Assembly (NCBI RefSeq): GCF_026240635.1
Contig: NZ_CP110848.1
Span: 2,517,501 to 2,581,500, forward strand
Reading direction: 5' to 3'
DNA length: 64,000 nt
Source: Trichothermofontia sichuanensis B231
GTDB taxonomy: Bacteria > Cyanobacteriota > Cyanobacteriia > B231
In this document: positions 49,144 to 57,763 of the stretch, one piece after another
Numbering within the stretch: position 1 is the stretch's first letter
How the letters are laid out: each line of letters begins with the position of its first letter
Made by a program: the position numbers and the translations under genes
The notes under the pieces: model-generated
Told to the model about the DNA's origin: nothing
Seen by the model: the letters and a program-made list of their open reading frames with translations, nothing else
The model's database searches: none

Positions 49144-49914
49144 CTAGGGGTTCAACGTTGTCTGCGCTGCAATATCGATCAGTTTAAGCAGGGTCTTTTC
49201 ACTGAAATATCGGACTTTCCTTCCTTTTTCATCCTTTTTCAGCCGCTCAACCACGTCTGAAAAGGAGCTAAAAGTCTTCTTGCTTCGCTCCTTCAAGATC
49301 TGTTTACAGACTGCACCTGCATCCCGAACTCCTAAGCTTTGAAGCCGCAACGCCAGCTTGTCTATTTCCAGGGTATTCATCTCTTCCAGTAAAGAGCGTT
49401 GTTTAGGGATACGCTCTGAGATTGCCTGTAATTTTTGATTAAAATCTTTTTCAAGCTGTTGTTGCTTTTGTTCGAGAGTTTGTTGAATCTGATTCAGGCG
49501 ATTCTCCAGGTTGTCAAGCCGCTTAGAAAGGACTCCAGCTTCAGTAATAGTAGGCGTTTCAATAGTAGTCGCTGATGCAGCGATAGGAGTAACTGATGTG
49601 GCCTGCGATGCACTAATCTGCTGAAGCAGGGCTTCTTCTACTTCTGGACTATCTTTGCGATCGACTACAAAGGCATTCACCATCTCAGCTTTTCTGGGAT
49701 CTTTTTCCCTGGCCTTGACAGCAGCATAATACTCTTTGTGTCCGTGCAAGACGATAAACTCATGAGGCTTGGCTTCTTTAACAATCAGTGGCCCTGCTAA
49801 GATGCCGACCTTTAAGAAAAGATTAGCCACCTCGTCAATTTCTAATTCTGGGAAAGTCGATCGCGGCTGATCAGACTGGATAGCTTTAACGTCAACAAGT
49901 TTATAGCTAACCAT
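49144..49914 (-). CDS. ParB-like coiled-coil protein of the accessory cassette
   Basis: A 256-residue protein. The N-terminal 85 residues look like a ParB/sulfiredoxin-type domain (LVDVKAIQSDQPRSTFPELE, then LIVKEAKPHEFIVLHGHKEY in the place of the usual substrate loop). A coiled coil runs from about 125 to 175 (LDNLENRLNQIQQTLEQKQQ). The C-terminal 75 residues are lysine-rich and helical (VCKQILKERSKKTF). The start lies 3 bases after the parA stop, with GGAG just upstream, so the two are translated together. It probably acts as the DNA- or partner-binding half of a ParA system; no helix-turn-helix was confirmed. Confidence 0.7.
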   Translation of the reverse strand: MVSYKLVDVKAIQSDQPRSTFPELEIDEVANLFLKVGILAGPLIVKEAKPHEFIVLHGHKEYYAAVKAREKDPRKAEMVNAFVVDRKDSPEVEEALLQQISASQATSVTPIAASATTIETPTITEAGVLSKRLDNLENRLNQIQQTLEQKQQQLEKDFNQKLQAISERIPKQRSLLEEMNTLEIDKLALRLQSLGVRDAGAVCKQILKERSKKTFSSFSDVVERLKKDEKGRKVRYFSEKTLLKLIDIAAQTTLNP

Positions 49915-49917
49915 AAG

Positions 49918-50682
49918 TTAAGCTCCGATTTTTTCTAGCACTTCCCCAGCTAAAACTTCAAATTCTTGGGCTGAAGGGGAATTGGGATCATACTTGAAAA
50001 TAGACTGAGGATTCGGAATTTCGAGATCGCCAACTGTCACTGTTGCATCAGCACAATGAGATAGCGCAACCCTTTCAGAAATAATGGTATCAAAAACAGG
50101 CAGATCATACTTATCAATGACTGCTTGTTTCTGCTTAGGGAATGTATTAGCTAAATACTTAGGATTTGTGCTAATCTTGGAGGGCAAAACTCCTAAAATC
50201 TTCAGTTCACCCTTGCCGATCGAGATGCGATATTCATTGATATCTTTAACAAAATTCTTGACATTGGGAAGTCCCTGATTAGCAAATGGTTTCAAATCGG
50301 AAGGAATGATAAGATAGTCAGCCGCTATCATTGGCAACTGAGCGTAGAGGTCTCTGGAGGGAGGTGCGTCAATTAAAACAATATCATAATCATTCTCTAC
50401 TTGCTTGAGTTTCATGGGTAGCCGGGTTCGACTGACTGCGATTTGGTTTAATTTCTCTTGTACTTCAATCAGGTTAATGTGTGAAGGGATAACATCAATT
50501 TCAGGATCATTAAATAATTGAGACTTTCTTCTAAGATCTGGAATAAAATCTAGATCACCTGATAATAAAAGATGGGCAACATTTGCATCTTTAAGATCAT
50601 CATCTTCTTCCAATACAAACTTAACTAAACCAGTTGCGAACGTTGAGTTTGCTTGTGCGTCAATGTCAATCAATAAAACCAC
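49918..50682 (-). pseudogene. ParA-type ATPase, main part downstream of a frameshift
   Basis: This frame encodes the body of a ParA/MinD-like ATPase. It begins with LLIDIDAQANSTF, the region straight after Walker A, and has the Walker B text YDIVLIDAPPSRDLYAQLPM and the family segment YLIIPSDLKPFANQGLPNVK. The Walker A loop lies upstream in the other frame (50666..51280). Removing one C from 50679-50680 (an extra G in the gene) joins the two as GLRVLLIDIDAQANST, the normal ParA text. So this is a one-base insertion in parA, or a sequencing error, or less likely a programmed +1 shift. A GTG at 50682 could start a truncated protein with no Walker A. Confidence 0.75.
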
Positions 50683-51280
50683 GTAGACCTCTTAATCGCA
50701 AAGCAGCAGCTAGATTAACTGATACGGTTGTCTTGCCAACGCCACCTTTGTTATGATAAATCGTGATAACTTTCATCTGATGTTTCTCCTGAGTGGGATC
50801 TCTTTGGCTGGTTACATCTTGAGCTGGATTTTGTATTGATTTTAACCTTTTTTTAATGTGATCACGACCAATAATGTTTCTAATTTTAGGTAACTGAGTT
50901 GAGATATCTTGACCGGCACATTCAAAAACTTGCTTAACAGTGTTACCCTGCCGTTCATAGATGCGTAATTGTTTAGCGTTCGTTAATACCCCAAACAAAA
51001 TACGCAACTGAAGCATATAGCGGATCAATTTATGTTCATGCTTATCTAGCTTTTCCTGTGGCCCTTTGGCTTCTACAATTAACCCCAGAGGTGTATTGTC
51101 AGTCAGTGAGAATGGCAGCACTTGGGAGGCAAATGCCAGAAAATCTAAACGAATGTTGCCAAAGGTAATCTCTTGGTGCCAGCTATCCGGTGAGTAGCCC
51201 AACTCTGGTAGTAAATATTGAACAATGAGTTTGCTTTCGACCTCAGTCTCATTGCGACACAGATTCGGATCAAAGCTCAA
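50666..51280 (-). CDS. HsdR-N-like nuclease domain in frame with ParA Walker A
   Basis: A 204-residue frame. Residues 1-130 resemble the N-terminal domain of type I restriction HsdR subunits (HSDR_N_2): VESKLIVQYLLPELGYSPDS, then IRLDFLAF and LGLIVEAKGP, which supply the Asp and Glu-x-Lys of a PD-(D/E)xK nuclease fold. A 30-residue linker follows. From residue 169 it reads MKVITIYHNKGGVGKTTVSV, the ParA start with Walker A, and ends at a stop created by the frameshift. The ParA part could be made separately from the internal ATG at 50776. The start is TTG at 51280. I know of no named system with this fusion. Confidence 0.7.
   Translation of the reverse strand: MSFDPNLCRNETEVESKLIVQYLLPELGYSPDSWHQEITFGNIRLDFLAFASQVLPFSLTDNTPLGLIVEAKGPQEKLDKHEHKLIRYMLQLRILFGVLTNAKQLRIYERQGNTVKQVFECAGQDISTQLPKIRNIIGRDHIKKRLKSIQNPAQDVTSQRDPTQEKHQMKVITIYHNKGGVGKTTVSVNLAAALRLRGLRGFID
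50786..50790 (-). promoter_or_regulatory. internal Shine-Dalgarno for the ParA start
   Basis: AGGAG on the minus strand lies 9 bases before the in-frame ATG at 50776-50774 (MKVITIYHN). This allows ParA to be translated separately from the upstream nuclease-like domain. Confidence 0.6.
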
Positions 51281-52253: not shown

Positions 52254-54257
52254 TCAGAACAAGAGATCGAGATTCAACTGGCGGAGGTCCACGGTATAGA
52301 GACACCCACTATGGGTCGTCTCGTCCCAAGTTGCCAGGAGCAAGCCATGCTTACCAAAGCAGGTGATTGCAGTTGGTTGGCCTGGTCCTGCTATCTGTCC
52401 TATTTCCTGTCCTGATCCATCTAGAAACAATAAGGTCCCCGCTGTATCCGCCAGGACATACCCCCAAGGGGCCGCCGCTACCAGCTTGGGGATGATCGCC
52501 ACCGGCAACCGCATCACGCGGAAGGGCTTAAGGTCTAAGACCAAAAGTGATGCTGGATATGGACCATACTCTAGTGGACACGCCATCTTGAGACAAGTGT
52601 CGACGGCTAACGATTCGTAGGTCATCAACCGGTAGGGCTTGATTCCCTGGAAGAATCTCCCGGTCATCACGGGCACATTCAGACTGCCCAACAAACGCCC
52701 GCGGCGATTAAAGACTTCAAACCGGGATGCCTGGGCGCGATGGCGGTACGAAATGGCTACCCCGTGAGCTGAGTCTAGCGGAATAATCTGGGCAATCTGG
52801 GACGCCCGACATTCTAGATTACGCTGCGGGGTTAAGCTTGGCCAAGGCCACAGCCATAAAGGACTTTTGGGCGTACTCGGTAGTAGGGGAGCCGCCGCCA
52901 GCCAGTAGCCGTGGGGATCAATGGCGATCGCCGAATCCGTTTCCTGCGACAGCACACACCGGGGGTAAACTAGGATGGTTTCCAAGCTAGTTGAGGGCAT
53001 CCGGCCAGCAGGGGCGGGAAAAGGAATGTGGTAAAGCCCTTGGGCCGTGATTGCAAAACAGTCTCCGGACGGCTGGGCGAGATATCTACCCTGGAAAATC
53101 GTCAAGGATTGGGCTGGCATTGGTAAGTGACAAACCGATCGCTGCACCTCTTGGCCCGTCAGCAAACCCGGCATAAATGTGCGGCAGTAGACCCACTGGC
53201 GCGACAGGCAGTAAAGGGTTTCCGTAGCCCCCTGCTGGGGTGTCGCGGGCAGGAACTGGACACGTAGGTCACAAATTGGTGCCTTCAGGGGTTCCTGGCG
53301 CAGGGCGGTAAAGGTCAAGTGCAGGGGTGAAGGGAGGTCTGTGGGGGATGCGGTTGCCAGGGCCGCCGCTGGGGCAGCAACCGGCTGGTGGGGAAGCCGG
53401 CAAAAGAGGGGAACCGTCGAGGCCGCCGTGCCTATGTCCAGGGACCAACCGGTAGCCTGGGCTGCCGATCGCAAATCCGCCAGCATTTCCGCCGCCGAGT
53501 GGAAGCGGCGTCCCATCAGCTTTTGTAACGCCTTACGAATCACGCCCTGGAGCGGTTCCGGGATAAAGGCAGGAATTTGGACCGGTCGATTCAAATGAGC
53601 TGACATTAAATCCGCCGGTGTTCCGGAGAAGGGGCGTTCGCCCACCAATAGCTCAAACAAAATAATGCCAACAGCATAGAGATCCGACGCCGGCGAATAC
53701 TGACCATAGAAGCGCTCCGGCGCCATATAGGCCGGCGACCCGGTCGTATTAAAATCCTGATGTAAATCCTGACTCAGTTGGGCAATGCCAAAGTCCGAAA
53801 TCCGTCCCAACCACCCCGTCGGTTGGATCTGGAGGAGGATATTTTCCGGTTTAATGTCACAGTGGACAATCCCCCGACTGTGGGCATGTTCCAACCCCAA
53901 CAAAATATCCATCACCAGCTTGAGACTATGGGCTGGGTGCAGGCGAGCCTCCTCCAGGATCAGATTGCGCAGGGTGCCACTTTCACAGTAGTCCATGACC
54001 AGGTAGCGCCCATTAGCCGTATGTTCCAGCGCCTGACAGGTCACGATATTCGGATGCTGAAGACTCAGGAGAAATCGCAACTCCCGCAGGAATTTGTGCG
54101 TGGGAAAGCGCTCGTGCTTCAGTTCCTTGAGGGCGACCATCTGCCCCGACTTGCGATGAATGGCACAAAAAACGCGACCAAACTGCCCCTGCCCAACTAA
54201 CCCTAAGAGCCGATAGTTGGAAATACGGATACTTCTGGCATAGAGGTTACCTGCCAT
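52254..54257 (-). CDS. spkG: serine/threonine protein kinase, SpkG-like
   Basis: A 667-residue Hanks-type kinase. The kinase domain occupies about residues 10-270: glycine loop GLVGQGQFGRVF, lysine in MVALKELKHE, catalytic loop IVHCDIKPENIL (HCD in place of the usual HRD), DFGIAQLSQD and SPAYMAPERF. The C-terminal 390 residues have no family I recognise and no transmembrane helix. The position, last in a set with two V4R proteins and two small PAP-type proteins, matches slr0152 (SpkG) of Synechocystis, so I infer orthology. It starts 89 bases after the V4R gene. Confidence 0.85.
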   Translation of the reverse strand: MAGNLYARSIRISNYRLLGLVGQGQFGRVFCAIHRKSGQMVALKELKHERFPTHKFLRELRFLLSLQHPNIVTCQALEHTANGRYLVMDYCESGTLRNLILEEARLHPAHSLKLVMDILLGLEHAHSRGIVHCDIKPENILLQIQPTGWLGRISDFGIAQLSQDLHQDFNTTGSPAYMAPERFYGQYSPASDLYAVGIILFELLVGERPFSGTPADLMSAHLNRPVQIPAFIPEPLQGVIRKALQKLMGRRFHSAAEMLADLRSAAQATGWSLDIGTAASTVPLFCRLPHQPVAAPAAALATASPTDLPSPLHLTFTALRQEPLKAPICDLRVQFLPATPQQGATETLYCLSRQWVYCRTFMPGLLTGQEVQRSVCHLPMPAQSLTIFQGRYLAQPSGDCFAITAQGLYHIPFPAPAGRMPSTSLETILVYPRCVLSQETDSAIAIDPHGYWLAAAPLLPSTPKSPLWLWPWPSLTPQRNLECRASQIAQIIPLDSAHGVAISYRHRAQASRFEVFNRRGRLLGSLNVPVMTGRFFQGIKPYRLMTYESLAVDTCLKMACPLEYGPYPASLLVLDLKPFRVMRLPVAIIPKLVAAAPWGYVLADTAGTLLFLDGSGQEIGQIAGPGQPTAITCFGKHGLLLATWDETTHSGCLYTVDLRQLNLDLLF

Positions 54258-54346
54258 TCAGGGTGAAGAATGATTGCTTGCCAAGTCTATTCTGCCTAAT
54301 CGATAGCTTGATTAGCGTTACTACCGTTATTGTGCCCCCTTAACCT

Positions 54347-55036
54347 CTAGCTTTCACCACATAGGGACTTCATAATGGCAGCGTGATCCATGTTCTGATT
54401 GACCATCTCCTCAGCTGCCAGTAGGCGATCGCGTAACCCCAGCACAAAGATATTACACTCTGCCCCCAGGGACTCGCAGGCGGTTTGGACGCAGTGGAGG
54501 TCCCGGCCCGTCAGTTGGCTAAAGAAGGCACTCAGTACCCCCGCCTCCAGAAAACACACTGGACGTTTCGTCGCCGCACTGGGATCAACGCTGCTGACAG
54601 CCATTGCATGTTTAGCAAAGGGGGAGTCCCAGATTTTCACCAGTAGGAAACCGCGCTGCTGATAGGTTTGATCCAGATCGATGCGACCCCAGCCGTGGGT
54701 CTGCCAACACTGCTGCAACGATTGCAAAAATTCAATCATCGGCAAGTCCGCTAGGGGCTGATGGTAGTAGTCGGAGAGATCTTCACAGAACCGGGCATAG
54801 AAGTTTTTGCCCCACCAACGACCACAGTTGAAGAGGACAAGGCGGGTTGCCTGTCCCGTTTCCTTATACAAGCCGGCATAAATCGCCTGCAGGAGGGGTT
54901 CGGGCATCGCCAAAAGTCTTGCCCCACGTCGATTTTCCAGCAGACCAAGTTCTAAATCACTGTGAACGTAGGCATCGGCCACGAAAAAATTACTGGGGAT
55001 GCGGTTATCAACCAACAAATCAGCAACGGAAACCAT
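54347..55036 (-). CDS. V4R domain protein, PAP-operon type (slr0147-like)
   Basis: A 229-residue protein with an N-terminal region (DLELGLLENRRGARLLAM) and a V4R small-ligand-binding domain (about 90-205: LVLFNCGRWWGKNFYARF, then VCFLEAGVLSAFFSQLTGRD and CESLGAECNIFVLG). V4R domains bind small molecules such as tetrapyrroles or hydrocarbons in relatives. Its place between the 159-residue gene and the kinase fits slr0147 of the Synechocystis PAP operon, involved in photosystem II assembly. Weakly similar to the other V4R protein at 56091..56774, so an ancient duplication is likely. Confidence 0.82.
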   Translation of the reverse strand: MVSVADLLVDNRIPSNFFVADAYVHSDLELGLLENRRGARLLAMPEPLLQAIYAGLYKETGQATRLVLFNCGRWWGKNFYARFCEDLSDYYHQPLADLPMIEFLQSLQQCWQTHGWGRIDLDQTYQQRGFLLVKIWDSPFAKHAMAVSSVDPSAATKRPVCFLEAGVLSAFFSQLTGRDLHCVQTACESLGAECNIFVLGLRDRLLAAEEMVNQNMDHAAIMKSLCGES

Positions 55037-55186
55037 AGGACCCTACCCTTATAGTCGCAATACTATCGCAATCACATCGTACGGATCGCCAACCTGTCGC
55101 TATCACACGCTTAGCCAATCCTTTCGTGAGTGTCATAACATCTGGCGCACAGCTAGCCTCTCCTGCTACCTCCCAATACCGACCCA

Positions 55187-55666
55187 CTAGGCAGTGACGG
55201 AGGAACCAGGATTTAAAACAGCATCCCGCGCCGTCACCAGGAACGGTTGCAAAAAACTCATGGATTTGGGACCCAGGGCTTGGGTCAGGGCCTTTTCCAA
55301 ATGGCGATAGAGGGCACGATCGATCGCCTGGGTGTTATAGACCTGCACGTTACGACTCAGCCAACCCAGCAGACGCTCCTGGATGAAGGTGACATCATCC
55401 AGCAACATGGACATGGCACAGTAGCGAACAACGAGGAGCGTATTCTTGATGCTGCGTTCCAGGTCTACGGTTGAGACTTGGGGCATTTCGATCTGAACCT
55501 GATCGACGGCTTGTTGCATAATCGTAACTTCTTGATCGCGCAGACGGCGGTAGGTTTCGAGTCGATCGGGTAGGGAATTGACATATTTATCCAAGAGGAC
55601 CAATTCCTCAGGTTTGAGATATCGGTTTTCTGCCTGATCTAATAGGGCTTCAATTTGTGGGTGCAT
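55187..55666 (-). CDS. PAP-operon protein (slr0146-like)
   Basis: A 159-residue, entirely helical protein (IEALLDQAENRYLKPEELVL, LRDQEVTIMQQAVDQVQIEM, VVRYCAMSMLLDDVTFIQER). The segment with cysteine near residue 80 and the pattern of helices recall the globin-like fold of phycobiliproteins, but no chromophore cysteine context is clear. By position it corresponds to slr0146. A role in photosystem II assembly is inferred from the operon. ATG start; 108 bases after the 106-residue gene. Confidence 0.75.
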   Translation of the reverse strand: MHPQIEALLDQAENRYLKPEELVLLDKYVNSLPDRLETYRRLRDQEVTIMQQAVDQVQIEMPQVSTVDLERSIKNTLLVVRYCAMSMLLDDVTFIQERLLGWLSRNVQVYNTQAIDRALYRHLEKALTQALGPKSMSFLQPFLVTARDAVLNPGSSVTA

Positions 55667-55773
55667 AGATTCGCTCCAGTGCAGACAGGTGCCAGAAATA
55701 GTTGGTCGTGAACGGCGTCAATTGACGATAGCCAACGCTGTCAGACAGGGCTGACTTAGCCAGGCTAAGTTCC

Positions 55774-56094
55774 CTAGAATAGACTCGAAAAGTCGTCAAC
55801 AGTAAGGTCAGATCCCTGACTCTCGGCAATCGGGATAGCCTCTTCTAGGGGGATAGGTGCCGCAATCGCCTTGCCATCCCAGGGGATGGCATTCATAAAC
55901 TGGCTAACGGTTAAGGTTAAGCTGAGCGGGCCGCCGGTCTCAAGCGAAGTTCGCTTCAATTCCTGGACAGCTAGGGGTTGATCATCCCAATTGACTGCTC
56001 CAAAAAACTGCTGCACTGTTAGCGTCAGCCATGCCCGATCAGGGGCCGTCAGCGCCGCACCGTTGCGGCTTGCAGGTGAGGTCAGCGTATTCAT
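55774..56094 (-). CDS. PAP-operon small protein with internal repeats (slr0145-like)
   Basis: A 106-residue protein. Two similar units are visible, LTLTVQQFFGAVNWDDQPL (residues 26-44) and LTLTVSQFMNAIPWDGKAI (59-77), and a shorter third, LTVDDFSSLF, ends the protein. It has no signal peptide or membrane helix. Its ATG overlaps the stop of the upstream V4R gene (ATGA), a clear sign of translational coupling. By position it corresponds to slr0145. The function is unknown. Confidence 0.78.
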   Translation of the reverse strand: MNTLTSPASRNGAALTAPDRAWLTLTVQQFFGAVNWDDQPLAVQELKRTSLETGGPLSLTLTVSQFMNAIPWDGKAIAAPIPLEEAIPIAESQGSDLTVDDFSSLF

Positions 56095-56774
56095 CCCAAG
56101 CGCTCCCCAGACCGTAGCCGTTTTTCAATATCCCTTGCCGTTGCGCCTTCATTCAACCAGAAGGCAGCAGCATCAATCCGATCCTGTCCCCCAATCAGAA
56201 ACTTGCAGTAGGTTTCCCCCATTGAATAGCACTGAATTTCAATGCAACTCAGTTGTTTTTTGACCAGTTCAGTAAAAAAACCGGCAAATAAACCCGCATA
56301 GATGTGGCAAACTGGTTTGCCGACATCACCTAAGGTACGGGCAACAGCGGAGTCGAACAGGTTAATGAAAAGAAAACCTTGTTTACGATCGCCCATATCG
56401 ACTTCCCAACGTCCCCAGCCTTGGGAGGTGAAGGGCCACCACCAAGTTTCTAGCAGAAAGAGAAGATTGGTTTGGCGGATATTGCGCTCGAATTCCCGCT
56501 CGAACCATTTCTCGAAAAAGAAGGCATCCCGCTGGCCCCACTCGCAACCAATGGTATACATAATGGCAGCAGACGCATCGCCAACTTCTTCTTCCAACCC
56601 TTCCACCAGGCCAATAATAAAATCCTCTGTGGCTAAAATATTTTGGGCACCATTCCAATCAACAATTGTGCCTTTCTCAGTGTCAAACTTAAAGAAGTCA
56701 CGGAATCCGTAATGGTTATGCTTTTTCGGATTCTTCCGTTGCGGTGTGGCTGTTTGTGCAGTTGCGTTGACCAT
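56091..56774 (-). CDS. V4R domain protein, PAP-operon type (slr0144-like)
   Basis: A 227-residue protein, first in the five-gene leftward set. The N terminus is basic and polar (KNPKKHNHYGFRDFFKFDTE). The V4R domain covers about 60-210: IMYTIGCEWGQRDAFFFEKW, WWPFTSQGWGRWEVDMGD, PVCHIYAGLFAGFFTELVKK and CYSMGETYCKFLIGGQDRI, with the paired cysteines typical of the domain. It matches slr0144 in position and design. The promoter must lie in the 490 bases upstream. It overlaps the next gene by four bases. Confidence 0.85.
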   Translation of the reverse strand: MVNATAQTATPQRKNPKKHNHYGFRDFFKFDTEKGTIVDWNGAQNILATEDFIIGLVEGLEEEVGDASAAIMYTIGCEWGQRDAFFFEKWFEREFERNIRQTNLLFLLETWWWPFTSQGWGRWEVDMGDRKQGFLFINLFDSAVARTLGDVGKPVCHIYAGLFAGFFTELVKKQLSCIEIQCYSMGETYCKFLIGGQDRIDAAAFWLNEGATARDIEKRLRSGERLG

Positions 56775-57265
56775 AATGTTGCCTAGCGGTTACCAATACA
56801 TTTGAAGATAGATTTAAAGACTGACAGCCCCTTCCAACACCTGCCGCCTGCGAGACGGCTGCTTGAAAGTGGCCTGTTTGCCGGATGCACAACCCCAAAA
56901 TCCTGAGAAAAGTAAGCCTGAACAAACTCGAATGCCCCCAGTGATTTCCCCATTACAATACGGGGTGACGTTTTCTTGCTCCGGGCGATCGCCAGCCTGA
57001 GTGGGTATATTACTCCCTCCACGATAACCTAAGCCTTAACGGCTGGGCGGGTATTCACCCATCAGTTCGTCGCTGGCCCCAGGCAACACCCCCTTGGGAG
57101 AACTGGGGGAGAACTGTCCAGTATTTTACTGACCCCGATCCGGGTCAACCGTTGAGCTGTAACAATGCTTAATCCCTGACCCTAGGGGATATACAGAAGT
57201 CTGATGCAGGACAGTAGTACTGGACACAAGGTCCCGATGCGGCTAGCGCCTTCGCCTGCCTGATA
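56775..57265. other. region upstream of the PAP-like operon
   Basis: About 490 bases without a gene up to the family B element. It should hold the operon promoter. No hairpin, RNA gene or clear box was recognised. Confidence 0.4.
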
Positions 57266-57485
57266 CAGCTTTTACCTAATTTACTCAGTACACCATTCAG
57301 GTTTAGAGCTTGATCCGAGCGGCCTCCCTCATCCTCCAACCCCTTCGCCCACAAGGGGCGAAGGGGAGCCGGATTTTCAAGTCCCTTTCCGGCTCTGGGA
57401 GAGGAATTTAGGGTGAGGGCCGCACCCGTGGGCGGCACCCAGCTTACCCAGGGAAAACTGGCCTTTATGATTGGGGTAAAGGCTG
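57266..57485. mobile_element. MITE-like element, family B, copy 2
   Basis: A 220-bp element. Left end CAGCTTTTACC and right end GGTAAAGGCTG are an 11-bp inverted pair with one mismatch. TA flanks both sides (57264-57265, 57486-57487). The core matches copy 1 in reverse (CACAAGGGGCGAAGGGGAGC, GAGGAATTTAGGGTGAGGGC). It supplies an uninterrupted version of the site where copy A4 inserted. Confidence 0.7.
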
Positions 57486-57490
57486 TACTA

Positions 57491-57593
57491 TAGTCATTAC
57501 AATTTAGGCTGAAACAGCCCCCTCACCCCCAGCCCCTCTCCCAGAGCGGGAGCGATGACTGAAAAACTGTATCGTTCTTATTTGGATTGACCA
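57491..57593 (+). mobile_element. MITE-like element, family A, copy A8
   Basis: A 103-bp copy flanked by TA (57489-57490, 57594-57595), starting just six bases after the family B element ends. The core hairpin is partly eroded (GGGAGCGATGACTG). Confidence 0.75.
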
Positions 57594-57648
57594 TATCCCT
57601 ACCGCTCTCTCCGTCTGAGGGTCGCGATCGTTCATGCAAGGCTACCAA

Positions 57649-57760
57649 TTTGCCAGGGATACTTTGAATAACCCTAGTCTGAACCACTCAAACCGGCTGT
57701 CTGCCTAAATTGAGCCGGACTCTTTTGCCAGGGATACTTTGAATAACCCTAGTCTGAACC
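57649..57760. repeat. perfect 37-bp direct repeat before the histidine phosphatase gene
   Basis: A 37-base sequence beginning TTTGCCAGGGATACTTTGAA and ending CCTAGTCTGAACC occurs at 57649-57685 and 57724-57760, 38 bases apart. The second copy ends 3 bases before the next ATG. It is a duplicated leader or promoter segment. Confidence 0.85.
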
Positions 57761-57763
57761 CCT

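What the first reader, a model, noticed from the sequence alone, without database searches (positions are those of the whole stretch)
52254..56774. Compact PAP-like operon with kinase but without the ferredoxin genes
The order V4R, small repeat protein, helical protein, V4R, Ser/Thr kinase parallels slr0144-slr0145-slr0146-slr0147 and slr0152 of Synechocystis. The genes that sit between in that strain (slr0148-slr0151, including ferredoxins) are absent, and the kinase directly follows the second V4R gene. It shows which parts form the stable core and ties the kinase to photosystem II assembly.
Basis: partly seen in the sequence, partly recalled or inferred. Interest (0 to 1): 0.6.

Follow-up and report, generated by a model that had tools for sequence, protein, structure and literature searches.

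The report
Split photosystem-II helper operon with kinase
Five neighbouring cyanobacterial genes, including a protein kinase, match part of a known photosystem II helper operon; this compact order is common in related cyanobacteria, and two partner genes that looked missing, including the iron-sulfur gene, simply sit elsewhere in the same genome.

Summary
In detail: on the minus strand, V4R (56774..56091), a small repeat protein, a phycobiliprotein-like globin, a second V4R and a Ser/Thr kinase (54257..52254) lie in the order slr0144-0145-0146-0147-0152, each the best two-way match to a Synechocystis-layout genome. Two parts of the interpretation fail. First, the layout is not special: 72 of 80 related named loci have the kinase directly behind the second V4R gene. 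Second, the slr0148-type Fe-S gene and slr0149-type globin are not lost. They lie together 445 kb away with the flank that sits directly upstream of the first V4R gene in about 30 relatives, so the cluster is split here. The slr0151-type TPR gene does seem missing. The tie to the kinase is supported, by co-occurrence more than adjacency: in 386 genomes the SpkG clade occurs in 50 of 56 genomes with the V4R module and in none of 330 without; a second, partly overlapping draw gave 210 of 230 versus 17 of 160. The kinase is dispensable in some lineages, whereas the Fe-S gene occurs in 56 of 56. New details: SpkG has a clade-specific cysteine quartet in its kinase domain, HCD for HRD, and a C-terminal all-beta domain (perhaps a propeller).

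The parts
56091..56774 (-). V4R-A, slr0144-type V4R-domain protein (227 aa)
   Evidence: PF02830 E 1.6e-21; two-way best match to the slr0144-like protein, 64% identity; C156, C182 and C190 invariant in 146 relatives, E179 >90%
55774..56094 (-). slr0145-type small repeat protein (106 aa), two copies of an [LM]TVxxFfxxixWdg motif plus a C-terminal TLDDFSDLF-like motif
   Evidence: Alignment of 37 relatives; weak two-way best match; overlaps V4R-A by 4 bp; low-confidence short-helix model
55187..55666 (-). slr0146-type phycobiliprotein-like globin (BBAG family; called globin-1 or BBAG1 here)
   Evidence: PF00502 E 1.4e-9; two-way best match to the slr0146-like protein; Ser where phycobiliproteins carry the bilin-linking Cys
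54347..55036 (-). V4R-B, slr0147-type V4R-domain protein (229 aa), metal-site residues partly lost in the family
   Evidence: PF02830 E 1.1e-13; two-way best match 46%; Cys conservation
52254..54257 (-). SpkG-type (slr0152-type) Ser/Thr kinase: kinase domain residues ~13-270, all-beta C-terminal domain ~316-667
   Evidence: PF00069 E 7e-51; clade support 100/100; K44, E59, D134, N139, D155 present in all 98; AlphaFold2 model pLDDT 85.6 with 29 strands in residues 320-657
54258..54346 (-). 89-bp V4R-B/kinase spacer, no promoter-like match found
   Evidence: in relatives the median gap is 27 bp and the ORFs overlap in 12 loci
56775..57763 (.). Divergent intergenic region upstream of V4R-A (about 990 bp) that probably holds the operon promoter
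   Evidence: only a chance-level promoter match at 57148; no Rfam match

Best explanation
This is one half of a split Pap (slr0144-slr0152-type) cluster. The module is two V4R proteins, two phycobiliprotein-like globins, a small repeat protein and a 2Fe-2S protein. Here the V4R-A, repeat, globin-1, V4R-B and SpkG genes form one five-gene unit, while the Fe-S and globin-2 genes sit 445 kb away. [quoted passage not shown] Shown here: gene content, orthology, the split and the co-occurrence. Inferred: a shared transcript, the complex, the substrate and the photosystem II role in this organism.
For: Two-way best matches for all five proteins (kinase also, 310 bits against 68 for the next kinase in G014). 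SpkG clade 100/100 against other kinases. Fe-S and globin-2 genes at C1:2128717-2130030 with the c7, LysR and kinase flank, the flank found directly upstream of V4R-A in about 30 relatives. Co-occurrence: SpkG 50/56 with the module, 0/330 without; second draw 210/230 against 17/160; Fe-S gene in the same 56/56. SpkG is kept where it is unlinked, and G300 has two clusters and two SpkG genes. Literature: Slr0144-Slr0149 interactions by co-fractionation and affinity purification (PMC9880817); Fd5 phosphorylation lost in the spkG mutant (PMC11863333); slower growth and lower PSII activity on loss of the operon (PMC9145668).
Against: Several lineages keep the module without SpkG (family f18, and G010, G052, G191, G223), and one genus (g157) has an SpkG-like kinase without V4R-A. 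Co-occurrence was not corrected for phylogeny. SpkG kinase activity has not been verified in vitro (PMC11863333). Some papers end the Synechocystis operon at slr0151, and photosystem I has also been proposed as the target (PMC4853703). No transcript data exist for this organism.
Confidence: 0.7

Rival explanations
1. The kinase is a passenger: adjacency and co-occurrence reflect shared ancestry of a few large lineages, and SpkG acts on unrelated targets such as salt or oxidative stress responses.
For: Synechocystis spkG mutants show salt, H2O2 and fatty-acid phenotypes. The kinase is missing with the module intact in f18 and others, and present without V4R-A in genus g157. Families with neither gene are mostly whole lineages.
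Against: SpkG is retained in at least ten genomes where it lies tens to thousands of kb from the module. No family in the listed output has the kinase alone (27 with both, 5 module only, at least 11 neither). Fd5 phosphorylation depends on SpkG.
Confidence: 0.2
2. A real functional reduction: in this organism the five-gene unit works without its Fe-S and globin-2 partners.
For: Those genes are absent at the locus, and 36 of 80 named loci also lack an Fe-S gene within about 2.7 kb upstream.
Against: Orthologs are intact elsewhere in this genome (66% and 38% identity to the Synechocystis-like proteins, best matches). An Fe-S ortholog was found in all 12 genomes checked, including the split ones G011, G027, G164 and G209, and in 56/56 module-bearing genomes.
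Confidence: 0.04
3. The V4R/globin module acts mainly in bilin or tetrapyrrole metabolism or sensing, and its photosystem II effects in Synechocystis come from the neighbouring slr0150-slr0152 genes, slr0151 above all.
For: Descent from bilin-biosynthesis clusters (PMC10151467), whose authors note that some studies place the photosystem functions in slr0150-slr0152. The TPR gene is absent here. V4R-A keeps the Cys spacing of V4R zinc sites.
Against: Slr0144-Slr0149 are reported at the thylakoid and interact, and the pap operon responds to loss of lumenal PSII proteins.
Confidence: 0.25

Closest known systems
Pap operon slr0144-slr0152 of Synechocystis sp. PCC 6803
   Same: Order V4R-A, repeat protein, globin, V4R-B and SpkG; orthologous proteins, tested against Synechocystis-layout genomes
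   Different: slr0148- and slr0149-type genes are 445 kb away; no slr0151-type TPR gene found; the slr0150-type ferredoxin has only a generic ferredoxin as best match (55%)
Contiguous Leptolyngbya-type cluster (e.g. loci L005, L008, L087): c7, Fe-S, globin-2, V4R-A, repeat, globin-1, V4R-B, kinase
   Same: Same V4R-A-to-kinase unit in the same order
   Different: Fe-S and globin-2 genes lie directly upstream of V4R-A there, on the flank that this genome carries elsewhere
Pre-PcyA/BBAG gene clusters of PMC10151467 (2023)
   Same: Two V4R proteins, a phycobiliprotein-like globin and an Fe-S protein
   Different: No bilin reductase or heme oxygenase in the operon; a kinase and repeat protein are added; Fe-S gene displaced

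Membership tests
Pap (slr0144-slr0152) operon | Orthologs of Slr0144, Slr0145, Slr0146 and Slr0147 in order on one strand | tested here: met
   PCC 6803 itself was not in hand, Synechocystis-layout genomes were used; the match of the repeat protein is weak
Pap (slr0144-slr0152) operon | Fe-S (slr0148) and globin (slr0149) genes in the cluster | tested here: not met
   Absent at the locus but present at C1:2128717-2130030 in the same genome
Pap (slr0144-slr0152) operon | slr0151-type TPR protein | tested here: not met
   Only generic TPR matches in the own genome
Pap (slr0144-slr0152) operon | Genes share one transcript | not testable with these tools
   Same strand, gaps -4 to 150 bp; no expression data
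SpkG (Slr0152) kinase | Falls in the SpkG clade, not with other cyanobacterial kinases | tested here: met
   100/100 support, 40 SpkG against 21 other kinases
SpkG (Slr0152) kinase | Intact catalytic residues | tested here: met
   K44, E59, D134, N139, D155 invariant in 98 sequences
SpkG (Slr0152) kinase | Acts on the Fe-S protein Fd5/Slr0148 | not testable with these tools
   Reported from a Synechocystis mutant only (PMC11863333)
V4R domain family | V4R domain with the Cys/Glu metal site | tested here: met
   V4R-A C156, C182, C190 have the 26- and 8-residue spacing of DmpR C151, C177, C185, and E179 is conserved; the exact Glu ligand is not settled; V4R-B is partly degenerate
Light-harvesting phycobiliproteins | Conserved bilin-linking cysteine | tested here: not met
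   Ser in globin-1, no Cys in globin-2 at the aligned position

The most novel reading that the evidence does not exclude
SpkG is a thiol- or redox-gated kinase dedicated to the V4R-globin-Fe-S module: a clade-specific cysteine quartet (C31, C74, C91, C133, with HCD replacing HRD) would set its activity and an all-beta C-terminal domain would dock it on the complex, so that it phosphorylates the Fe-S protein according to thylakoid redox state even where its gene lies elsewhere.
Probability: 0.3. Interest if true: 0.65.

Novelty: new member of a known kind. Interest (0 to 1): 0.4.

Why it matters
The function of the slr0144-slr0152 genes in photosystem II is unresolved, and it has been suggested that the neighbours, not the V4R/globin core, cause the phenotypes. 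The comparison ranks the parts: V4R-A and the Fe-S gene always occur together, the kinase nearly always joins them, and the TPR protein is an extra. A genome like this one, with the module and kinase but without slr0151, is a natural test of that question. The cysteine signature and uncharacterised C-terminal domain give specific targets for work on a kinase whose activity has not been verified in vitro.

Tried and rejected
The PCC 6803 record was not available; spkG primer sequences from PMC3102658 matched no locus exactly, and near matches in L140 suggest a close Synechocystis. Promoter and terminator scans were at or below chance, and Rfam found nothing. Structure searches with the full kinase model listed only kinases; sequence searches with the C-terminal domain gave no significant match, so the propeller is inferred from strand count alone. 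The repeat-protein model is low confidence. A first kinase tree failed the one-clade test because one cluster kinase (L055) had been labelled 'other' by a score cut-off; relabelled by its position behind V4R-B, the clade is clean. Rejected: loss of the ferredoxin genes; the compact order as an unusual reduction.

Full report
What is there. On the minus strand between 56774 and 52254 lie five genes: V4R-A, a 106-aa repeat protein, a phycobiliprotein-like globin (globin-1), V4R-B and a 667-aa Ser/Thr kinase. V4R-A and the repeat gene overlap by 4 bp; the other gaps are 107, 150 and 89 bp. The kinase ends 30 bp from a convergent PEBP-type gene, and about 990 bp separate V4R-A from a divergent phosphatase gene. 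The 'helical protein' of the finding is a phycobiliprotein-like globin (PF00502).

Orthology. Against a Synechocystis-layout genome (G014, locus L138, which carries slr0144- to slr0152-like genes in order), all five proteins are best matches in both directions: strong for V4R-A (64%), V4R-B (46%) and the kinase (34% over 665 residues), weaker for the globin (35%), weak for the repeat protein. The comparison back to this genome used its candidate loci, not the whole genome; for the kinase the forward search covered whole genomes. In 12 whole genomes there is one kinase at 305 bits or more, and other kinases stay at or below about 94 bits. A tree of 61 kinase domains puts all SpkG-type kinases, linked or not, in one clade with 100/100 support; one fragmentary cluster kinase (L055) was assigned to SpkG by its position.

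The 'missing' genes. The own genome has a slr0148-type 2Fe-2S gene at C1:2128717-2129226 followed by a slr0149-type globin gene at C1:2129458-2130030. They keep the neighbours c7 (no Pfam match), a LysR-type regulator and another kinase. In about 30 of 80 named relatives the Fe-S gene sits directly upstream of V4R-A, with the same flank. The simplest reading is that one cluster was split between globin-2 and V4R-A, now 445 kb apart; the direction of the change was not tested on a tree. The slr0151-type TPR protein has no ortholog detected in this genome; the slr0150-type ferredoxin matches a generic ferredoxin best, so its status is open.

How unusual is it? Not very. In 72 of 80 named loci the kinase directly follows V4R-B; five of the remaining eight are cut by contig ends. 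The median V4R-B/kinase gap is 27 bp and the ORFs overlap in 12 loci, though ORF starts were taken as the longest possible. Other lineages use the Synechocystis order, place the kinase divergently next to the Fe-S gene (L096-L105), or detach it. The named loci were chosen as the closest V4R-A relatives, so this fraction describes Leptolyngbya-like cyanobacteria and not the whole phylum.

Is the kinase tied to the module? In a phylum-wide draw of 386 genomes, the V4R protein (in G005 seen only as V4R-B) and the Fe-S gene occur in the same 56 genomes, and SpkG (E <= 1e-45) in 50 of those and no other. In a second, partly overlapping draw of 390, 210 have both, 20 V4R-A only, 17 SpkG only and 143 neither; among genomes not in the first draw the first three counts are 166, 16 and 16. 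Some SpkG-only cases are fragmented assemblies; genus g157 looks like a real exception. By family, in the listed output, 27 have both, 5 the module only, none the kinase only and at least 11 neither (hand count, incomplete because negatives are only partly listed). Of 50 SpkG genomes in the first draw, 31 have it within 10 kb of V4R-A or the Fe-S gene; in at least ten others it is clearly far away. G300 has two clusters and two SpkG genes. This is better evidence for a functional link than adjacency, but it is not corrected for phylogeny, so the raw Fisher p-values mean little. [quoted passage not shown] for SpkG the present counts say otherwise.

Anatomy of SpkG. Catalytic residues are intact in all 98 sequences. 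Four kinase-domain positions are Cys in most SpkG sequences (C31 88%, C74 94%, C91 98%, C133 93%; all four in 77 of 98) but mostly L, L, I/V and R in other kinases. C133 replaces the Arg of HRD, making this a non-RD kinase. By alignment to PKA from memory, C74 falls at a regulatory-spine position and C91 in the hinge; spatial contacts were not measured. The C-terminal 350 residues model confidently as 29 strands, which suggests a seven-bladed propeller, but no fold or sequence match confirms this.

Other parts. V4R-A has C156, C182 and C190 at the 26- and 8-residue spacing of the zinc cysteines of DmpR (C151, C177, C185; PMC7264223), with E179 in the pattern; V4R-B has lost part of this in many relatives. 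Globin-1 has Ser, and globin-2 no Cys, where phycobiliproteins attach bilin, so any bilin would be held non-covalently.

Mechanism. From the literature, Slr0144-Slr0149 are placed at the thylakoid and interact (PMC9880817), loss of the operon lowers PSII activity (PMC9145668), and loss of SpkG abolishes Fd5 (Slr0148) phosphorylation (PMC11863333). The most likely picture is a tetrapyrrole- or bilin-handling complex with an Fe-S subunit whose state is set by SpkG during PSII assembly or repair. Only gene content, orthology, the split and co-occurrence are shown here; the rest is inferred. Photosystem I has also been proposed as the target, and sources disagree whether the Synechocystis operon ends at slr0151 or slr0152 (PMC4853703).

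Verdict. Observation confirmed; interpretation partly supported. A new member of a known kind with useful comparative detail.

Noticed in passing
49144-51280 (-): Low-GC (0.36-0.47) block next to the operon: ParB-like ORF and a ParA split by a frameshift near 50670, with the Walker A half fused to a restriction-enzyme-like N-terminal domain (domain names by eye); looks like a plasmid-type insertion.
   Followed up: partly
57649-57685 and 57724-57760 (-): Perfect 37-bp direct repeat in the intergenic region upstream of the phosphatase gene.
   Followed up: no
L170:6712-7587 and matches in about 60 loci: c7, a conserved protein of about 290 aa with no Pfam match, is a regular neighbour of the Fe-S gene.
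   Followed up: partly
L170:3805-5397: A second, non-SpkG kinase recurs next to the LysR gene upstream of the Fe-S gene in many relatives.
   Followed up: no
genus g157 of family f24 (G408, G423, G445, G473, G531, G606): SpkG-like kinase with weaker scores (1e-55 to 1e-69) but no V4R-A match: a possible repurposed kinase.
   Followed up: no
L142, L144-L147: Second-type clusters with two Fe-S genes flanking c7, diverged V4R genes and no kinase nearby.
   Followed up: no
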